Part shown: one piece after another, positions 13,514 through 22,239 of the stretch
Numbering within the stretch: the stretch's first letter is position 1
How the letters are laid out: each line of letters starts with the position of its first letter
DNA from: a virus
Direction: 5' to 3' (one strand)
Virus record (IMG/VR): IMGVR_UViG_3300045733_000691
Span: 1 to 33,691 of that record
DNA length: 33,691 bases
Position numbers and translations under genes: made by a program
Notes under the pieces: generated by a model
Database searches by the model: none
What the model was told of the DNA's origin: nothing
What the model saw: only the letters and a program-made list of their open reading frames with translations

Positions 13514-14476
13514 TTACTGTTCTTGTCCCTGCAAAAAATCTTCTAAAATGTCCACAGAAGCCTTCACTAGGTCAAAATCTTCGCCTTCGCTCGCCCTTTT
13601 GTTCGGGGTAGCGTTTGGTTTCTTTATCCTGTCACGAACGCCCCAATAAGTCGATTCATGCCGCTTGGAAGATTCCTTTTCGCCCTCGTCCATGATCTCT
13701 TCCGCCTTTTTGTTGTCGGCAGATTCATGAGCGTGACGTTTTCTAGTGCCAGCCGCTATTTTGGAGTGCATCTCGTCCTGTGTCATCGAATGACCTTCGT
13801 TGACCTCTTTTTGCGTAGGAACCTGAGACGGTTTTCCCTTTTCCAAATACTCCTCGATCACGAAGATCGCGGCCTTCACCAAATCAAGGTCCTCGCCCTC
13901 GCTAGCCCTTTTATTAGGAGTAGAATTAGGTTTCTTGATACGGTCTCTCACTCCCCAATAGGTCGCCTCGTGACGCTTGGAAGAGTCCTTTTCGCCCTCG
14001 TCCATGAGTTCGTCCGCTTTTTTACTGTCGGCAGATTCATGAGCGTGACGTTTGCGGGTGCCGGAAGCCATCTTGGCGTGCATCTCGTCTTGCGTCATCG
14101 AATGGCCTTCGTTGACCTCTTTTTGCGTAGGAACCTGAGAAGGTTTGCCTTTTTCAAGGTAATCCTCAAGAACTACGATGGCCGCTTTGACGACGTCAAA
14201 ATCCTCGTCGTCGGTAGACTTGTGGTCTAGACCGAACTTGCTGTCGTCACGGTCCTCGTCTTCGTCAGGAACTGTGGAAGAAACGTGCTCTACCGCCTCT
14301 CCAAACTTGCTCTTACCCTTTTTCGCCTTTTCCAAGAACTCGAACTCGCCTGGACCTGTCTTCACCAGCTCTACGCCGGAAGTTGGGTCCTGTGACTTCA
14401 GGATCTGGTCCTGAAGATCGGGAGTTAGGCTCTTGATGAAAGTGATCATCGTGAATTGGTCTTCGTAACGTAACAT
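13514..14476 (-). CDS. Charged protein with a 104-residue tandem repeat, unknown function
   Basis: Seen: 320 residues; the ATG overlaps the previous stop (TAATG) with GAAGGAGA upstream. Residues 92-195 and 196-299 are two near-identical copies, and residues 300-318 begin a third. Each unit opens with an acidic helix (VVKAAIVVLEDYLEKGKPSQ), then SMTQDEMH, a His-rich HAHESAD segment, and YWGVRDRIKKP. The N-terminal 90 residues are different and include a helix (MITFIKSLTPDLQDQILK). The helix at each repeat start also resembles helices in the neighbouring charged proteins. Likely a modular binding scaffold, but no known domain is recognised. Confidence 0.62.
   Translation of the reverse strand: MLRYEDQFTMITFIKSLTPDLQDQILKSQDPTSGVELVKTGPGEFEFLEKAKKGKSKFGEAVEHVSSTVPDEDEDRDDSKFGLDHKSTDDEDFDVVKAAIVVLEDYLEKGKPSQVPTQKEVNEGHSMTQDEMHAKMASGTRKRHAHESADSKKADELMDEGEKDSSKRHEATYWGVRDRIKKPNSTPNKRASEGEDLDLVKAAIFVIEEYLEKGKPSQVPTQKEVNEGHSMTQDEMHSKIAAGTRKRHAHESADNKKAEEIMDEGEKESSKRHESTYWGVRDRIKKPNATPNKRASEGEDFDLVKASVDILEDFLQGQEQ
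13580..14203 (-). repeat. Two tandem coding repeats of 312 bp, with a third partial copy to ~13520
   Basis: Within the gene at 13514-14476 the coding sequence repeats with a period of 312 bp (104 codons): 14203-13892 and 13891-13580, then a truncated copy of about 57 bp. Protein identity between the two full copies is very high (for example both contain KPSQVPTQKEVNEGHSMTQD). Differences are mostly conservative or silent, so the duplication is older than a sequencing artefact but still recent enough to allow unequal recombination. Confidence 0.85.
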
Positions 14477-15104: not shown

Positions 15105-15866
15105 TTAAAATAAATAAACGTCAGGAATCTCTAGTTTCATATGAACAACCCTAGGAAGATTCTCCCATGCTTGAACATCGCTCGGTTTGACTCCCCCGGC
15201 GGTAAAACCTCTGATCTCGTGGTTCGCACTTATGATTATGTAAGAAGGATTAAAACTGTAATATATTGAAAACGCAGTGCCGTCGACCGGCCTGTCGTTC
15301 CCATCGATCCAGTAAAGATTTCCGTCAGAATCTACGTCCACGTCTCTTTCTTCCTGGAAAGAATGCGAACAGTCATATTCTGTCCCGTCATTGTCTATGA
15401 CCCTCATAAGGTCTATTATCTTGTACGTGAAAGAATATTTAGAAACAGAATCAGAAAAAACCTTCGGTTCTGACCTGAATGTGACCGAGTCCTTGAAGAC
15501 CACCCTGTCCCTTATGTTCACCTTGTCCGTAGGGAGAACGTTGAGAGACGCGTATATGTTGGCCATAATTCCTTGTTCAGGAACCCTGTAGGTAAGCGTG
15601 GCCTCTTCCCTTTGGAAAGAATACGGTATAGCCTTGATGGCTCTGTTAAAAACGTACGCCCAACCGGTTCCGTTACACAGAGTACAGGAAAGTTTTTGAA
15701 ACTTGTGTTCCTCTATCTGGGTCTTGATCGTACAAGGACATATCATGGTGTTGTACCAGTCCCAATTGGAACCGTACATATTTATGAAAGCGACTATTCC
15801 TTCCGTGTTGTAGTCGATCTTTATCGGTTTAAAGGATAGTCTTGCTGCCCCTGTGGCTATGGTCAT
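15105..15866 (-). CDS. Neck/head-tail adaptor-like protein with zinc-knuckle motif
   Basis: Seen: 253 residues. Residues 41-68 contain CPC (C43, C45) and then CTLCNGTG (C61, C64), a CxxCxGxG unit like those of DnaJ-type zinc domains, so a four-cysteine metal site is likely. The rest is beta-rich, with conserved-looking NANIYASLN and an acidic DVDVDSDGNLYWIDG loop. Start ATG overlaps the stop of the 250-aa connector-like gene by four bases, implying paired expression and probably contact in the particle. Position after the capsid/decoration genes and before the tail genes suggests a neck or head-completion component. Function is inferred from position only. Confidence 0.55.
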   Translation of the reverse strand: MTIATGAARLSFKPIKIDYNTEGIVAFINMYGSNWDWYNTMICPCTIKTQIEEHKFQKLSCTLCNGTGWAYVFNRAIKAIPYSFQREEATLTYRVPEQGIMANIYASLNVLPTDKVNIRDRVVFKDSVTFRSEPKVFSDSVSKYSFTYKIIDLMRVIDNDGTEYDCSHSFQEERDVDVDSDGNLYWIDGNDRPVDGTAFSIYYSFNPSYIIISANHEIRGFTAGGVKPSDVQAWENLPRVVHMKLEIPDVYLF

Positions 15867-16615
15867 GCTAAAGCCGCCATCCTGATGCCGTAGTAGAAAT
15901 CCTTTAGCATCTTGACGAGGTTTTGGTTCTCTCTTTCATACTGTCTTACCCTGGCAGAATATGCGTGGTTTTCTGCCGAAAGAGTAGTGCTGACGGACTG
16001 CGAAAGACCGTCAACTCCTATGGAATAACCGGCAAGAGCCGCTTGGCCTCCAAGAGCTATTTCTCCAAGTACCGCCAAGACTCCTGAAGTCGCCAAGTTG
16101 CCTATGAGTTGCGCGAGAGCTCCAGGAATCTCGTCGCCTGGTTCAAATCCAGAATCGTACTTTACAAGTATGATTTGAGGAACGTACGACGAGGAAGAAA
16201 GAAGAGGCATAAACAATAAAAACTGATTACCAATTGACGCTGACGCAAGTATTCCGTAATAAGGAAGTAACTGAAGTTGAGAATTCTTCTTCTTAAGCTG
16301 TATCCATTCGTTTGGAATAGAAATCGTGGAAGTGATGATGTTGAGCTCAAGACTTTTGACCCTAATGCTCGGCCTCCTGTACATCTGAAGAAAACCGAAA
16401 CCGGAAGTCCATTCTTCCAAACGGTAGTCGTGACGCTCTTGATTATCGGAATGTTTGTCTATATCTATTCCGAGTAAAATCTCTGCCTGGTTTTTTGCCG
16501 AATTTATGTAAAAATTAAGAACATCGTCAGTCACAAAATCGTTGTCGTAAGAGATCGGTATCCTGTACAGGAAGGTTTCTTTCAACCAGTCTGGTGTTAG
16601 ATCACCGAACAGCAT
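15863..16615 (-). CDS. Head-tail connector (adaptor) protein candidate
   Basis: Seen: 250 residues, ATG with GAGGTGACAG upstream. The N-terminal region contains a helix, FYINSAKNQAEILLGI, of the kind seen in gp6/gp15-type connector proteins, where an early helix bundle forms a ring under the portal. The central part is beta-rich. The C-terminal third has a hydrophobic Gly/Ala helix (LAVLGEIALGGQAALAGYSI), then SQSVSTTLSAENHAYSARVR and a final helix. This tail is frequent in adaptor proteins that insert into the portal clip. It is translationally coupled to the zinc-knuckle protein. Adaptor identity is probable but not proven. Confidence 0.58.
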   Translation of the reverse strand: MLFGDLTPDWLKETFLYRIPISYDNDFVTDDVLNFYINSAKNQAEILLGIDIDKHSDNQERHDYRLEEWTSGFGFLQMYRRPSIRVKSLELNIITSTISIPNEWIQLKKKNSQLQLLPYYGILASASIGNQFLLFMPLLSSSSYVPQIILVKYDSGFEPGDEIPGALAQLIGNLATSGVLAVLGEIALGGQAALAGYSIGVDGLSQSVSTTLSAENHAYSARVRQYERENQNLVKMLKDFYYGIRMAALA

Positions 16616-16623
16616 CTGTCACC

Positions 16624-16995
16624 TCAGTTCTTGAACGGTACGTAAGCTACAACACCGTGAGTCCCGGAGTCAAGAATAATTATGGTGTCTTTCCCCGGAA
16701 CATGATGACAAAAAGGAGCGCTAGCAAAAAACGAAGAAAGATCCAACGGACCGGCACTACCGGAATAAGTGAACGCTGTCTCGTCTATGACACCGTTCGT
16801 ACCAAAACCGATGGTCACAGTCTTTCCCGCAGAATAAAGAGCCGTTATTATGTTTCTGGTTCCGACTCCCTCGCTGGCAAGGACTATCGATCCCACTCCC
16901 GTTTTATACAAACTTCTGTATTTTATGATGGAAGCCGTATTGTAGGATATAGTCGGAAGACGACTCAGGCTCATGTCTATCGTAGGAGCAGTCAT
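16624..16995 (-). CDS. Small structural protein sharing a VPGK motif with its neighbour
   Basis: Seen: 123 residues, ATG with AAGGAGA upstream. Beta-rich, with many Ser, Thr and Gly; no signal peptide. The C-terminus reads VPGKDTIIILDSGTHGVVAY. The same order of residues (VPGK, hydrophobic strand, D-G, V) opens the next protein upstream in the transcript (VPGKGTVLLTDNGPAVVG). That suggests a shared small fold or docking peptide. Position between capsid and connector genes suggests a head decoration or completion protein. No family recognised. Confidence 0.58.
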   Translation of the reverse strand: MTAPTIDMSLSRLPTISYNTASIIKYRSLYKTGVGSIVLASEGVGTRNIITALYSAGKTVTIGFGTNGVIDETAFTYSGSAGPLDLSSFFASAPFCHHVPGKDTIIILDSGTHGVVAYVPFKN

Positions 16996-17453: not shown

Positions 17454-17798
17454 TTAGTACGCCGTATTGAACACTATGTAATCGAAAGTAGACCCTTCCG
17501 CGTCGGCGTGATCGTCATGCGTTACAACAAAACTTCCGTCGACAACAGAAGAAACGTAAATGCCGCTCGTCACGTTCGCTCCTCCTGCGATCATCGTGGC
17601 CGCCTTGGCAGAACTTGGCGTTATCATAACGTGAGCACCCGCAAGAATTTTTGGATCAGTAACAGTCGTGGTTCCAACACCACTTATGGTCAAAGTCCCC
17701 TTGATGAACCCTATGAAATCAGAGTCGTGTCCGTGTCCTGGCCATTTTTGGACAGGGTGCGAAAGGACACTAGCACTCGGAGTTGTTTGAGTAGTCAT
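17454..17798 (-). CDS. Small decoration/fibre protein, paralogue of the collagen-like protein C-terminus
   Basis: Seen: 114 residues, ATG with AGGAGAT upstream. The N-terminus has a His-rich peptide (KWPGHGHDSDFIGF). From about residue 33 to the end it aligns by eye with the C-terminal ~72 residues of the preceding collagen-like protein: both begin GTLTxxG, then a TTT strand, a xxITPSSA/FLFPTSSA strand, then G(I/L)YVSS and a final xFxYxI(V/Y) strand. This is a beta-sandwich-like module. Being encoded next to the long form and after the capsid gene, it is probably a capsid-surface or fibre-cap protein. Function inferred. Confidence 0.65.
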   Translation of the reverse strand: MTTQTTPSASVLSHPVQKWPGHGHDSDFIGFIKGTLTISGVGTTTVTDPKILAGAHVMITPSSAKAATMIAGGANVTSGIYVSSVVDGSFVVTHDDHADAEGSTFDYIVFNTAY

Positions 17799-17810
17799 TT
17801 TTATCTCCTA

Positions 17811-18668
17811 TTATGGCGAATAGATTAGGTAGCTGAAAGTTTCCGTACCAGCAGCAGTACCATGTGTTAACGTAAAACTGACACCGTTACTAATGCTGGA
17901 CACGTACAATCCAGTCACAAGAGCGGCACCAGCAGAACTGGTTGGGAACAAGAATATTCTCGCGTTCGTAACAGCTCCTGCGTCGGCTTTTGTGGTTGTC
18001 ACTCCGCCTGTTAGTGTCAACGTTCCTCTGGCAGCAGCCGCGATTCCAGAATAACCGGAAGTACCTATTCCAGAGTAACCTGAAACACCGGAGTAACCGG
18101 ACGCGCCAGGATTTGCTCCTGAATAACCAGATCCACCAGAATAACCCGAGTAGCCTGAAGCACTTACTCCAGAATAACCTGAGGTAGAAGTTCCCGAATA
18201 TCCAGAAGTACCAGAATATCCTGAAGCACCGGCGCCAGAGTAACCAGAAACACCGCTGCCTGAATAGCCGGAAACACCGCTACCAGAATAACCTGAAGTA
18301 CCGGAATAACCGGAAGCTCCATTGTTTCCGCTAATACCGGAATAACCGGACTTACCAGAAAAACCCGAATAACCGGAGGCTCCTGCAAAACCAGAGTAAC
18401 CTGAAGTGGTGACTCCAGAATAACCGGAAACGCCGCTGTAACCAGACTTACCGGAATAACCGGACGTAGAAGCTCCAGAATAACCGGAAGTTCCGCTGTA
18501 ACCAGAATCACCAGGATTTGCTCCGGAATATCCAGAGCTTCCGATAGCACCGGAGTAACCTGAAGTACCGACCCCAGTATAATCCGTTATTTCACTTAAG
18601 GCGTGAGCGTGATTATGAAATTCGTTTTCGTACTTAAAACCAGAAGACGGTATATAGTTTTGTGGCAT
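17811..18668 (-). CDS. Collagen-like fibre or capsid decoration protein
   Basis: Seen: 285 residues in three parts. Residues 1-33 form a short N-terminal anchor with HNHAHALSEITDYTG. Residues ~34-208 are Gly-X-Y collagen-like sequence, nearly all built from GYSG units (about 22), with a few one- or two-residue interruptions. Residues ~213-285 are a beta-rich C-terminal module duplicated in the next gene. Family knowledge: phage collagen-like proteins trimerise through such a cap domain and form thin fibres on heads or tail fibres. The position right after the major capsid gene favours a head fibre. Tyrosine-serine-rich triplets rather than proline-rich ones suggest a low-hydroxyproline bacterial-type triple helix. 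The ribosome binding site is GGGGGAAAG. Confidence 0.78.
   Translation of the reverse strand: MPQNYIPSSGFKYENEFHNHAHALSEITDYTGVGTSGYSGAIGSSGYSGANPGDSGYSGTSGYSGASTSGYSGKSGYSGVSGYSGVTTSGYSGFAGASGYSGFSGKSGYSGISGNNGASGYSGTSGYSGSGVSGYSGSGVSGYSGAGASGYSGTSGYSGTSTSGYSGVSASGYSGYSGGSGYSGANPGASGYSGVSGYSGIGTSGYSGIAAAARGTLTLTGGVTTTKADAGAVTNARIFLFPTSSAGAALVTGLYVSSISNGVSFTLTHGTAAGTETFSYLIYSP
18045..18569 (-). repeat. GYSG-encoding tandem low-complexity repeat
   Basis: Codes for about 22 GYSG units in Gly-X-Y register, with short spacers. The unit SGANPG appears twice (near residues 48-53 and 182-188), suggesting that a larger block was duplicated. Codons for the same peptide vary between copies (mixed third bases), so the repeat is kept for its protein rather than from very recent slippage. 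Reading frames on the same strand stay open by repeat structure and produce shadow ORFs that are not genes. Confidence 0.85.
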
Positions 18669-18691: not shown

Positions 18692-18728
18692 AAAAAGGGG
18701 GACCACCAAGTTATCCTAGTAGTCCCCC
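18692..18728 (-). terminator. Rho-independent terminator downstream of the major capsid gene
   Basis: On the minus strand a GGGGGAC arm (18728-18722) pairs with GTCCCCC (18703-18697), a seven-base GC-rich stem that can extend by a few more pairs with mismatches through an 18-base loop. It is followed directly by TTTTTCTT (18696-18689). This is a textbook intrinsic terminator oriented for transcripts that have just passed the capsid gene. It lies 62 bases after the capsid stop and before the collagen-like gene. Confidence 0.75.
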
Positions 18729-18789
18729 CAGTTTCGCCTCGTGTTTACCTATACCTTTACGTTTTCTTCTCTGACCTGTTAGTTCCAGG

Positions 18790-20286
18790 TTAGAGGCTGA
18801 TGTTGATCACTCTCGTCCATTTTTGCGGAACGAAGATGACCGGCATCCCGTAAAGAAGGATCATCCACTTATAAGCCGGTGCGATGGTAGCAAGGTCCAT
18901 CTTTACCAGCGGAGCAAGTTGCCTGAAGGTCAATACGTCCGAAGTATTCTGACCGATGAAAGCCGTATAAGTATTCGGAAGTCTCCTTCCGTCCCAATCC
19001 ACCGTGGTCACAGCGTTTCCTAGAGGAATTCTCTGTACCCAGTAAACAGTTGCCGCTTGCGCAAGCGCCTGAGTGGCACACATGGGACTAAGGAAAATGT
19101 TGACAAATTCCGCAGCGTCGGCATCATTAGTGTCGGCAGAACCTAGAGTGATTCTGATCGATTGCGTGGTACCGTTTAACTGAATACAAGCTCCGGCAAT
19201 ACCTGCTGGAACTGTTGCAACACCACCGTCACCTTCGTAACCACGAGTCTCGCCGTACTTGTTCTCGAAGGTGTAATTGACCTTGTACCATCCAGCTGCC
19301 GGAACGTATCCTGTAGTAGGAGTTCCACCGCTGCTGGCGGTCATCGTCTTGCCAATAGCCGCTGCCATCGTCGTGCTCTTCAAGAGCTTGGACGCCGTAG
19401 GAATCGTTCTGGTCCTCTGGAGGAAATAGGTAGGCTTTAGATTGACCTTACCGGCCTGAGTCATCAAACTGTCCACGTTGATGTTAAGCTGGGTGTTTCC
19501 CGCAGGAGAAGGAAGTACGATACGCTGAGCTGCTGTACCAGCGAACTCGTCATTGATCTTCGCCAACAGTTGGTACGGAAGGTAAATGTCGGTAGGGAAA
19601 CCGAACTGGTCGACTACCGTCTGTGCCAAAGAGTTCACGACAGTCGTGAAAGGCGTGGTCGCCAAATTCACGTTACGCATGTCGTAGTTGTTTCCACCAC
19701 CAGTACCGATTCCGGTCGCTCCACCGATCTGTTGATCGATGCCTGCCCATTCCACGTATTCGGAAGCGTCACGGCCTTTATCGTTACCCCAGAAGAGGGC
19801 GTTTTCGATCTGGCGAAGCATCCACATGATGCCGTTGCTGTTTTCCTGAGCGATAACATCAGGAACCATCGTACGAACCAGGGTCATAGGGTGAGAGACC
19901 GAACGGGTCGTTCCCACGTACTTGACCAGGGCTACCTTACGTAAGTAGTCCGACGTGGTTGAGTAAGGAAGTTCACCTTCCGTAACGAACCCGCCAGTCT
20001 GCATTCCGTAAGAAGTCAGCTGGTTGTATTCCTCGGCGGTGCTGTAAGCAGGCGTCTTAGGAATGTCTTTCCAGAAATTGATGTGCTTGTCGGTGAAAGT
20101 TATGACCTTCAGCGAACTGTCGAGCGACTGAACACGTAGTGCCGCGCCGCCTGTGGTACCGTCTGTTACGATACCAGCGGTTGAGACTCCCGCCTGGAGA
20201 CCAAGAGAAGCAGCGCCTTCAAGCGCTTTGTTCAACTCTTGAACGTCTTGGCCGGACCCAATCCCGAATCCGTTAAAATCTAACAT
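18790..20286 (-). CDS. Major capsid protein (HK97 fold)
   Basis: Seen: 498 residues, ATG with CGGAGGACA upstream. The N-terminal half carries features typical of HK97-fold coat proteins of myophages: IVTDGTTGGAALRVQSLD, ITFTDKHINFWKDIPK (the spine/E-loop lead), and MLRQIENALFWGND. The C-terminal part is beta-rich with 'NKYGETRGYEG' and a terminal PVIFVPQKWTRVINISL strand. It follows protease and scaffold genes, the standard head order. No long charged delta domain is present at its N-terminus, so the separate scaffold gene probably supplies that function. Expect this to be the most abundant virion protein. The following terminator may serve to raise its transcript level relative to the genes after it. 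Confidence 0.85.
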   Translation of the reverse strand: MLDFNGFGIGSGQDVQELNKALEGAASLGLQAGVSTAGIVTDGTTGGAALRVQSLDSSLKVITFTDKHINFWKDIPKTPAYSTAEEYNQLTSYGMQTGGFVTEGELPYSTTSDYLRKVALVKYVGTTRSVSHPMTLVRTMVPDVIAQENSNGIMWMLRQIENALFWGNDKGRDASEYVEWAGIDQQIGGATGIGTGGGNNYDMRNVNLATTPFTTVVNSLAQTVVDQFGFPTDIYLPYQLLAKINDEFAGTAAQRIVLPSPAGNTQLNINVDSLMTQAGKVNLKPTYFLQRTRTIPTASKLLKSTTMAAAIGKTMTASSGGTPTTGYVPAAGWYKVNYTFENKYGETRGYEGDGGVATVPAGIAGACIQLNGTTQSIRITLGSADTNDADAAEFVNIFLSPMCATQALAQAATVYWVQRIPLGNAVTTVDWDGRRLPNTYTAFIGQNTSDVLTFRQLAPLVKMDLATIAPAYKWMILLYGMPVIFVPQKWTRVINISL

Positions 20287-20308: not shown

Positions 20309-21202
20309 TTAAAGACCTAGAGAAGCTCTGATGTTCTCAGGTATTACGTTTATGTCCCCAGAAGTCTCAAATCTGACTACCACTTGAGGATCTACCCCTT
20401 GGCCCTTGATTGACATGTCAAGAAGAGCAGAGGAGATCTCTGACTTTGACATTGTTGAGGTGCCTTCCATACTGTCGTTCTTCACTATGTCGGACTTTCT
20501 AAGGACCGACTTGCGAACGGAGAGCGCCTTCGTGATGTTGGAAAGAACCTTTTCTACCACTTCCATCTTTCCGGCGTATTCTTCTACCGTTTCTGCATAC
20601 TCGTTGTGCGATTTTTCCATGTCCTCAACCCTCTCGAGGGTCGCTTCAATGGAAGCGGCAAGACCGGTTCCTATGATTTCGGACTGAGAAGCCTTCGCAA
20701 AAGCGTCGGCGTATTTATCTTCAATCAAAGCAATGACTTCTTCCACGACGCTCTTGGCAATCTCCGCCTTAAACTGGTCGATATCAAGATAAACGGCCTC
20801 TGAAGAGGAAGAAGCTTTCTTGTGTTCTTTGGCTTCTTCTTCGGCAGACTCGTCTTTCTCGTGGTTTTTGTCTTTGTCATCCTCATCTTTCCCAAAATTC
20901 TTTTTTAGATTTGAAGAAGTGACAGACTTTTCGCCGCCTTCGTGTTTCTTGCTTTCTGGACGTGCTAGAGGAGCTTGACCTCCGCCTTCTTTAGCGAACT
21001 TGTATCCCTGCTCTTCTCCATCGTCTATTTCGACTCGAGGACCGCCTGGGTTTCCCTTATTTTGAGGATGAGTTCCAGAATTGGCTTTGTTCTTCTCTTT
21101 CCAGTCTTCGTCCTTTTTAGGAACACCTTGAATCGTGTGTTCGACGGCTTCTTGTGCCATGGCTTTATTGAGAAGATTGTCGATTTTTTCTAGTAATGAC
21201 AT
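20309..21202 (-). CDS. Capsid scaffold / prohead core protein
   Basis: Seen: 297 residues, ATG with TGGAGGA upstream. Residues ~25-135 are a highly charged, Lys/Glu/Asp/Ser-rich disordered stretch (DEDDKDKNHEKDESAEEEAK). Residues ~140-235 are probable coiled coil (VVEEVIALIEDKYADAF, then LERVEDMEKSHNEYAETVEE). A short C-terminal folded part (PQVVVRFETSGDINVIPENI) would contact the coat protein. Length, composition and location between protease and capsid genes are those of phage scaffolding proteins. Family knowledge: scaffolds guide prohead assembly and are then degraded by the protease. Confidence 0.72.
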   Translation of the reverse strand: MSLLEKIDNLLNKAMAQEAVEHTIQGVPKKDEDWKEKNKANSGTHPQNKGNPGGPRVEIDDGEEQGYKFAKEGGGQAPLARPESKKHEGGEKSVTSSNLKKNFGKDEDDKDKNHEKDESAEEEAKEHKKASSSSEAVYLDIDQFKAEIAKSVVEEVIALIEDKYADAFAKASQSEIIGTGLAASIEATLERVEDMEKSHNEYAETVEEYAGKMEVVEKVLSNITKALSVRKSVLRKSDIVKNDSMEGTSTMSKSEISSALLDMSIKGQGVDPQVVVRFETSGDINVIPENIRASLGL

Positions 21203-21253: not shown

Positions 21254-22201
21254 CTAAAAAATGTCGCTCTTTTCGAGAACATCAAAAAAATTATCCAATC
21301 CGCCAGCCTTTGTTATCAAACTTATGACTTCGTCAACCACAACGTCACTGGCTTTCGGATTAACCGATTTTATGATGTCGTGAAGTTCTTTTCTTGTTTC
21401 AAAAAGAAGAATAGATTTCTTCCTAAATTCATTTTCTATAGTTGGATCAGCCAATTCTTCTGTTTCTGGAGCTTCATCTTTTCTTTTGATCCTAACGCCT
21501 TCCAGAGATTGGGTTCTGGTGGCGGCATAACCGGTAGTTCCTTGTGTAACTATTCTGGGGGTAGAAACCGACGCCATAGCTCCAACAGAATAGTCTAACG
21601 CACTACCTGCGTCCTTTAATATATATTTTAAGATGTCGTCATACGAAGCAGGAACAATGGATTTGGTAAGATTGTCTATAGTTAACGTGGCTTTAATGTT
21701 AACCGGGATGTGAGTGATGGCGACATTAGTGATCCTTGCTTCCAGGATCTTGGACTTGTTCATTTCCGACCTTCTGGTGACCTTCCCCTCGATGGAAAAG
21801 CCCATATTCCTTGGATTACCTACGTCGTGAAGTTCGCAGATGAGATTCCACACGTGATTGGCCATCTCCGTCTTAAAAAGCATTCCCTTGACAAAAAGGC
21901 CCTTAGAATTTACGCTGGCTTCGGTCGGACATCCTATTATGTGGCTTGGAGAGTTGTTGTGCATCCAGTTGAACCAACCCTGGGACTTAAAATAACTTAT
22001 GTCCAGACCGTTTTGGACAACAACTTCGTTATCGGTATCAACGTTGTCTGTAGATGCCATTCCTTTGATTATTCTTTTGGTAGCGTTCTTAAGGTCAACC
22101 TTCCTGGCCTTCAAAATGTCCGGATCAACCTGTTCTTCACATATGTGAAGGTCGTCAGAAAATACGTTAAAATCGTCTTCTATCAGAATTTGTGTCGCCA
22201 T
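21254..22201 (-). CDS. Prohead protease (S78/HK97-type serine protease)
   Basis: Seen: 315 residues from the ATG at 22201, which has GGAG eight bases upstream; a TTG four codons earlier is possible but lacks a suitable ribosome binding site. The sequence has GWFNWMHNNSPSHIIG with a candidate catalytic histidine near residue 81, and NMGFSIEGKVTRRS with a candidate catalytic serine near residue 136. These are the H and S of the S78 family that includes HK97 gp4. The C-terminal ~110 residues are extra, ending in helices, and may be a core-binding tail. It is the first gene of the minus-strand transcript and precedes scaffold and coat genes. Reaction: self-cleavage, scaffold removal and trimming of capsid proteins during maturation. 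Confidence 0.82.
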   Translation of the reverse strand: MATQILIEDDFNVFSDDLHICEEQVDPDILKARKVDLKNATKRIIKGMASTDNVDTDNEVVVQNGLDISYFKSQGWFNWMHNNSPSHIIGCPTEASVNSKGLFVKGMLFKTEMANHVWNLICELHDVGNPRNMGFSIEGKVTRRSEMNKSKILEARITNVAITHIPVNIKATLTIDNLTKSIVPASYDDILKYILKDAGSALDYSVGAMASVSTPRIVTQGTTGYAATRTQSLEGVRIKRKDEAPETEELADPTIENEFRKKSILLFETRKELHDIIKSVNPKASDVVVDEVISLITKAGGLDNFFDVLEKSDIF

Positions 22202-22239
22202 TAACGTCTCCAAAATGGATTGTTTTCATAACTATACAT
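22201..22239 (-). CDS. Possible 12-codon leader peptide ORF before the protease
   Basis: A small ORF starts ATG at 22239 and reads MYSYENNPFWRR, with its TAA overlapping the protease ATG (TAATG). Many genes in this genome are coupled in exactly this way. There is no clear ribosome binding site at normal distance, though a GGAAAG hairpin stem lies upstream. It may be a translated leader that couples into the protease, or chance. Confidence 0.2.
   Translation of the reverse strand: MYSYENNPFWRR

What the first reader, a model, noticed from the sequence alone, without database searches (positions are those of the whole stretch)
17454..18668. Collagen-like GYSG protein and a stand-alone copy of its cap domain side by side
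Seen: the C-terminal ~72 residues of the collagen-like protein and residues ~33-114 of the next protein share order and spacing of strands (GTLT, TTT, a FP/TPSSA strand, G(I/L)YVSS, FxYxI). Both proteins also carry short His-rich N-terminal peptides (HNHAHA and GHGHDSD). Inference: a gene duplication in which one copy gained or lost a collagen shaft, giving a long and a short version of the same particle-surface or fibre-tip module. This is just after the capsid gene, so a two-component head-decoration system is possible.
Basis: partly seen in the sequence, partly recalled or inferred. Interest (0 to 1): 0.7.

Follow-up and report, generated by a model that had tools for sequence, protein, structure and literature searches.

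The report
Swappable collagen head-fibre cassette beside capsid gene
An uncultured phage related to SPO1 carries, right after its capsid gene, a collagen-like rod with a lectin-like tip and a separate short protein made mostly of the same kind of tip; in related phages these parts are rearranged (bare rods, tipped rods, one to three loose tips), which suggests a modular set of spikes decorating the virus head.

Summary
The last 71 residues of the collagen-like protein and residues 34-111 of its neighbour are homologous (BLASTP E=4e-6; score 119, best of 10,000 shuffles 70). AlphaFold gives both the same strand order, and both best match the C-terminal domain of trimeric phage tailspikes (Pam1; also Klebsiella K1 lyase, Pfam PF24146). 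The pair follows an SPO1-type capsid gene.

A simple duplication is not supported: the window's collagen tip groups with tips of podophage small ORFs and tailspikes, not with the neighbouring loose tip (support 97/87; one-clade test p=0.017). All 23 readable relatives have GYSG collagen gene(s) right after the capsid gene: 16 carry one or two short bare collagens (59-112 aa, near the size of SPP1 gp12), 7 carry one long tipped collagen plus one to three loose tips. The tipped state changed at least three times. Nearly all rods and many loose tips share a short N-terminal motif (YP..G...GY.Y), probably a docking peptide; the window's loose tip lacks it.

Best reading: trimeric head-decoration proteins with interchangeable outer parts. 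Head location is inferred from gene order and SPP1 gp12; neck whiskers remain possible. New variant of a known kind.

The parts
17811..18668 (-). P0002, 285 aa collagen-like (GYSG) protein with C-terminal cap
   Evidence: ORF; Pfam Collagen PF01391 E=3.3e-10
18618..18668 (-). P0002 N-terminus, residues 1-17, with the motif Y.P..GF.Y; candidate docking peptide
   Evidence: Regex shared with nearly all cassette rods, none of the unrelated N-termini tested; not found by the stricter HMM
18600..18617 (-). P0002 HxH motif, residues 18-23 (HNHAHA)
   Evidence: Sequence; an HxH is kept in L003, L004, L007, L008
18042..18569 (-). P0002 collagen-like shaft, residues 34-209, 176 aa, 23 GYS triplets, 11 interruptions, 2 prolines; at most about 50 nm if all triple helix
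   Evidence: Script; Pfam PF01391
17814..18026 (-). P0002 cap domain, residues 215-285
   Evidence: Homologous to P0001; AlphaFold pLDDT 85; tailspike C-terminus fold; PF24146 E=1.5e-5, just under its cut-off
17454..17798 (-). P0001, 114 aa loose cap protein
   Evidence: ORF; kept after the tipped collagen gene in 7 relatives
17700..17798 (-). P0001 N-terminal arm, residues 1-33, with GHGHDSD at residues 21-27
   Evidence: 76% identical between near relatives against 59-68% for the cap
17457..17699 (-). P0001 cap domain, residues 34-114
   Evidence: AlphaFold pLDDT 93.5; Foldseek 7eea Pam1 tailspike, probability 1.00
17805..17809 (-). AGGAG ribosome site of P0001 in the 12-nt gap after P0002
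18696..18729 (-). Intrinsic terminator between capsid gene and cassette, 15-bp stem and T run
   Evidence: kept with a changed stem in L005 and L018
18790..20286 (-). Major capsid protein, SPO1 type (context)
   Evidence: phrog_752 E=2.8e-71; Pfam SU10_MCP E=3.5e-8
15863..16615 (-). Adaptor-like ORF, syntenic with SPO1 gp6.3 (context)
   Evidence: Gene order

Best explanation
The cassette encodes trimeric proteins that decorate the outside of the virus head. P0002 docks by its N-terminus, extends a flexible collagen-like rod of up to about 50 nm and ends in a lectin-like cap that helps the three chains register and probably touches cell-surface or environmental glycans. P0001 is the same kind of cap held close to the shell by its own arm. 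Across relatives the outer parts are exchanged (bare short rod, long rod with cap, loose caps), mostly behind a common N-terminal motif, much as tail-fibre tips are exchanged. Shown here: cap homology, common predicted fold, conserved place after the capsid gene, repeated gain or loss of caps, and a shared N-terminal motif in most members. Inferred: trimer state, triple helix, head location, docking role of the motif, and glycan binding.
For: In all 23 readable relatives the first gene(s) after the capsid gene are GYSG collagens. The bare forms (59-112 aa) match SPP1 gp12 in size (64 aa), collagen-like core and place next to the capsid gene; gp12 trimers sit at hexon centres (PMC6813328, PMC6316719). 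Caps have the predicted fold of trimeric tailspike C-termini. An HMM from bare-rod N-termini finds tipped rods and loose caps of L005, L018 and L025, best E 3e-6, best of 1,019 unrelated N-termini 0.35; a looser regex also covers the window's P0002. Separate giant GYSG proteins with a different N-terminus lie in the tail-fibre region of a 163-kb relative, about 27-40 kb away. The tipped state changed at least three times on the capsid-protein tree.
Against: No particle data; none of these phages is cultured. The window's loose cap lacks the shared motif, and the window's P0002 matches only a regex written after seeing the data. The GYSG rod is poor in proline (2 in 176) and interrupted 11 times, so a stable triple helix is not assured. 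Genes next to the adaptor could equally serve the neck. Foldseek E-values against the PDB are modest (best 2.6e-3). AlphaFold was run on single chains only, and the loose-cap alignment included collagen caps.
Confidence: 0.58

Rival explanations
1. The proteins form neck whiskers or collar fibres: P0002 is the whisker and P0001 a second collar component, bound at the adaptor or stopper ring rather than over the shell.
For: The genes lie between the capsid and adaptor genes. The related phage 812 has unidentified whisker density around its adaptor (PMC12886913), and A-1(L) has neck fibres built from several trimeric proteins (PMC10966104).
Against: The likeness of the bare rods to SPP1 gp12 points to hexons. 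A-1(L) neck-fibre genes (gp80-82) are numbered far from its neck genes (gp2, gp5, gp7), so the place next to the capsid gene is not typical of them.
Confidence: 0.2
2. P0001 is an accessory that works on P0002: it binds or caps the collagen fibre (mixed trimer, chaperone or stacked tip) and is not a separate decoration.
For: Loose caps occur only where the rod is tipped and never with bare rods (8 of 8 against 0 of 16). The genes are 12 nt apart.
Against: In L005, L018 and L025 loose caps carry the same kind of N-terminus as the rods, which points to parallel docking rather than stacking. The number of loose caps varies from one to three. The two caps belong to different branches.
Confidence: 0.12
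3. These are ordinary tail or baseplate fibre genes that happen to sit beside the capsid gene.
For: PHROG hits of the collagen part are all tail fibre families, and the cap occurs on tailspikes.
Against: The place is fixed across all relatives. A relative has its own giant collagen fibres in the tail region with a different N-terminus. Collagen hits are driven by repeat composition.
Confidence: 0.08

Closest known systems
SPP1 gp12, collagen-like trimeric capsid decoration protein (PMC6813328, PMC6316719)
   Same: Collagen-like core, small size of the bare forms, gene directly beside the capsid gene
   Different: gp12 stands alone and has no cap; here rods come in pairs or carry a tailspike-type cap with extra loose caps. 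The phage is an SPO1-like myophage, not a siphophage. gp12 lies before its capsid gene, these after it. Sequence homology could not be tested
PF24146 K1-lyase_C, C-terminal beta-sandwich of tailspikes (K1 lyase 7w1c, Pam1 tailspike 7eea)
   Same: Same predicted fold; sequence matches in nine of 20 caps
   Different: There the cap ends an enzymatic beta-helix on the tail; here it ends a collagen rod or stands nearly alone beside the capsid gene
Small podophage ORFs with a cap (L049, L051, L052, L066, L071, L072; BFVD Ralstonia phage Firinga 132 aa)
   Same: Short protein with an N-terminal arm and a C-terminal cap
   Different: Different arm, and a place in the tail or neck module after a large gp10-like protein
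Heads with more than one decoration protein: Sf14 gp33 and gp20, T5 pb10, T4 Hoc (PMC11821841, PMC5292684)
   Same: Surface proteins with a docking part and an exposed outer domain
   Different: Those outer domains are Ig-like or a trimer lattice; here rods and tips are interchangeable modules of tail-fibre type

Membership tests
SPP1 gp12-type collagen-like capsid decoration protein | Collagen-like G-X-Y core | tested here: met
   Pfam PF01391 E=3.3e-10; triplet parse with interruptions
SPP1 gp12-type collagen-like capsid decoration protein | Gene adjacent to the capsid gene | tested here: met
   All 23 readable relatives and the window
SPP1 gp12-type collagen-like capsid decoration protein | Trimer bound at hexon centres of the expanded capsid | not testable with these tools
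   Needs particles or expressed proteins
SPP1 gp12-type collagen-like capsid decoration protein | Sequence homology to gp12 outside the collagen repeat | not tested
   SPP1 record not held
K1-lyase_C (PF24146) tip domain | Profile score over the curated cut-off | tested here: inconclusive
   Window collagen cap 25.8 bits against 27; window loose cap no hit; nine of 20 caps hit at E<=0.1
K1-lyase_C (PF24146) tip domain | Beta-sandwich fold of the tailspike C-terminus | tested here: met
   Foldseek 7eea probability 1.00 for both caps; 7w1c/7w1d lower down
K1-lyase_C (PF24146) tip domain | Trimer dome | not testable with these tools
   Only single chains could be predicted
SPO1-type (Herelleviridae-like) head module | Order protease, scaffold, capsid protein, small ORF(s), gp6.3-like adaptor, later tail sheath and tube | tested here: met
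   against 55, 56; portal and terminase lie on the other strand in the window
Neck whisker or collar fibre | Attachment to the adaptor or stopper ring | not testable with these tools
   Needs structure or proteomics

The most novel reading that the evidence does not exclude
The post-capsid block is a combinatorial head-display cassette: one short N-terminal address sends any of three outer parts (bare collagen rod, tipped rod, loose tip) to the head, and tips are swapped in from the same pool as tailspike and tail-fibre tips, so the head, not only the tail, evolves its own changeable set of adhesins.
Probability: 0.35. Interest if true: 0.68.

Novelty: new variant of a known kind. Interest (0 to 1): 0.5.

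Why it matters
If the N-terminal motif is a head address, it is a short portable peptide whose docking on a phage head can be tested directly, and the lineage offers a natural series (bare rod, tipped rod, loose tips) for asking what head fibres do, a question still open for SPP1 gp12 and similar proteins. It would also show that the tip-swapping seen in tail fibres extends to the head. If it proves ordinary, the result is still a useful annotation: collagen-plus-cap genes next to a capsid gene need not be tail fibres.

Tried and rejected
(1) Simple tandem duplication of P0001 and P0002: not supported by the cap tree. (2) Homology of the two His-rich N-termini: score below the shuffle mean; the HxH motifs may be independent, and L005, L018 and L025 lack them. 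(3) A solved homologue by sequence: a profile search of the PDB gave only chance hits. (4) Isolated-phage relatives of the collagen genes: none, though low-complexity masking weakens that negative; P0001 has one hit in a Bradyrhizobium phage (E=1e-5). (5) Homology of the small ORF after the capsid gene in SPO1-group phages with P0003: none. (6) A wide pattern scan with all caps failed for lack of conserved stretches; narrower ones returned mainly the known set plus podophage and tailspike caps. The one genome-collection scan found only a marginal, probably chance match. (7) A broader capsid-protein scan found no new contigs, so the IMG/VR sample is saturated at this sensitivity. (8) The SPP1 gp12 sequence and paper were not obtainable.

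Full report
WHAT WAS CHECKED. The window is a 33,691-base IMG/VR virus record. On the minus strand lie, in order, a head maturation protease (21254-22213), a scaffold-like ORF (20309-21202), the major capsid protein (18790-20286; phrog_752, E=2.8e-71), the collagen-like P0002 (17811-18668), P0001 (17454-17798), two small ORFs (P0004, P0003), an adaptor-like ORF (15863-16615), and later the tail sheath and further tail genes. This is the SPO1-group order; the closest cultured capsid proteins are only 35-38% identical.

THE SIMILARITY IS REAL. BLASTP of the two proteins gives E=4e-6. The cap alignment scores 119 against a maximum of 70 in 10,000 shuffles. An HMM from the first eight caps recovers both members of the pair in every tipped relative. 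The first 33 residues of the two proteins are not alike, although each holds an HxH motif that is kept in the nearest relatives L003, L004, L007 and L008. HxH motifs are linked to iron at the axis of trimeric phage spikes such as the Sf14 tail needle (PMC11821841), so a metal-clamped trimer is possible, but this is inference.

WHAT THE CAP IS. AlphaFold2 of the loose cap gives pLDDT 93.5 (alignment of 20 caps of all kinds). The collagen cap, modelled from an alignment that holds none of the cassette's loose caps, gives 85. Both have the order E-E-E-H-E-E-E. No direct superposition could be run, but Foldseek puts the same domain first for both: the C-terminus of the Pam1 tailspike 7eea (probability 1.00, TM-score 0.59-0.66 on the query), with Klebsiella K1 lyase and R2 pyocin fibre lower down. 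PDB E-values are modest (best 2.6e-3); among predicted viral proteins four fall below 0.001. Pfam K1-lyase_C hits nine of 20 caps, and the window's collagen cap falls just under its cut-off. In K1 lyase three such beta-sandwiches form a dome at the trimer interface (PMC8822698), and the C-terminal domain of R2 pyocin fibre is called lectin-like (PMC6116203). The cap family also ends tailspike-like proteins (L073, L074) and forms small podophage ORFs with a different N-terminal arm (L049, L051, L052, L066, L071, L072).

THE CASSETTE IN RELATIVES. A capsid-protein scan gave 25 contigs, 23 with the next genes readable. All 23 have GYSG collagen gene(s) immediately after the capsid gene. Sixteen have one or two short bare collagens (59-112 aa). 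Seven, and the window, have one long tipped collagen (284-406 aa) plus one (window, L003, L007, L008, L009), two (L005, L018) or three (L025) loose caps. Several contigs are near-copies, so these are not independent counts. No bare-rod locus has a cap nearby; in the 111-kb, 116-kb and 163-kb relatives the only cap found is a weak one on a 768-aa tail-region protein. On the capsid-protein tree the tipped state needs three changes, and one origin is rejected (p=3e-55).

NOT A SIMPLE DUPLICATION. In the cap tree (26 rows, 82 columns) the window, L004 and L007 collagen caps lie inside a 97/87 set with podophage and tailspike caps. L018 and L025 collagen caps form another deep pair, and L005's stands alone. 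Collagen and loose caps as one clade is rejected (p_AU=0.017). Identities agree: the window's collagen cap is 41% identical to its neighbour and 44-45% to several podophage or tailspike caps. With so few columns this is suggestive, not final. The simplest account is that rod tips were exchanged more than once from the wider tailspike pool, while loose caps were kept and sometimes duplicated.

A SHARED N-TERMINAL MOTIF. Seventeen distinct bare-rod N-termini share roughly M-x-x-Y-P-x-x-G-D-x-x-G-Y-x-Y. An HMM from them alone finds tipped rods and loose caps of L005, L018 and L025 (E from 3e-6 to about 1) with the best of 1,019 unrelated N-termini at 0.35; it does not find the window's own two N-termini. 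A looser regex, written after seeing the data, matches 41 of 49 family rows and the window's P0002, and none of the other roughly 1,390 N-termini tested. The window clade's loose cap lacks the motif; its own arm is more conserved (76%) than its cap (59-68%), as expected of a binding arm.

WHERE IN THE PARTICLE. Three lines point to the head: the conserved place between capsid and adaptor genes; the likeness of the bare forms to SPP1 gp12, a 64-aa collagen-like protein whose trimers sit at hexon centres (PMC6813328, PMC6316719); and the 163-kb relative, in which giant GYSG proteins with a different N-terminus (MRRIFDLFKDLRDVPSPDEGKFLVWDN) lie in the tail-fibre region about 27-40 kb away. Neck whiskers are the main rival: phage 812 has unidentified whisker density around its adaptor (PMC12886913).

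EXPRESSION. A strong intrinsic terminator (18696-18729, 15-bp stem) separates capsid gene and cassette, kept with a changed stem in L005 and L018, and SPO1-group records annotate a terminator at the same place. No sigma-70-like promoter follows it, so the cassette may be read by partial read-through, below capsid-protein level (inference). P0001 starts 12 nt after P0002 with its own AGGAG site.

VERDICT. Observation confirmed, interpretation partly supported. Most likely a modular set of trimeric head-decoration proteins: a new variant of a known kind.

Noticed in passing
window 18696-18729 (-): Intrinsic terminator between the capsid gene and the collagen gene, conserved in place with changed stem sequence in L005 and L018; SPO1-group phages have one at the same place.
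   Followed up: partly
window 16624-16995 (-); L005 7282-8363, L018 4263-5364, L025 6457-7561: A second post-capsid family: P0003, a small protein of unknown family, with a longer 234-248 aa relative beside it in L005, L018 and L025 that shares an N-terminal stretch like PTIS.N...V.KYR..Y. It may be another decoration protein with its own N-terminal address.
   Followed up: no
G003 99267-113360 (L098): Three giant GYSG collagen-like proteins of about 770, 1300-1510 and 1690 aa in the tail-fibre region of a 163-kb relative, one ending in a weak cap match; two share an N-terminus of the type R.I...F..L.D...PD.GKFL.W.
   Followed up: partly
L004 9922-10449, L011 5328-6092, L013 6106-6648: ORFs that look like GIY-YIG homing endonucleases inserted after the adaptor-like gene in several relatives, absent from the window (judged by eye).
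   Followed up: no
window 15863-16615 (-): PHROG labels this ORF a tail fibre protein (phrog_772), but its place matches SPO1 gp6.3, an adaptor-like head-completion gene; the label is probably misleading.
   Followed up: no
window 13514-14476 (-): The 320-aa ORF contains two nearly identical stretches (EDYLEKGKPSQVPTQKEVNEGHSMTQDEMH...), an internal duplication.
   Followed up: no
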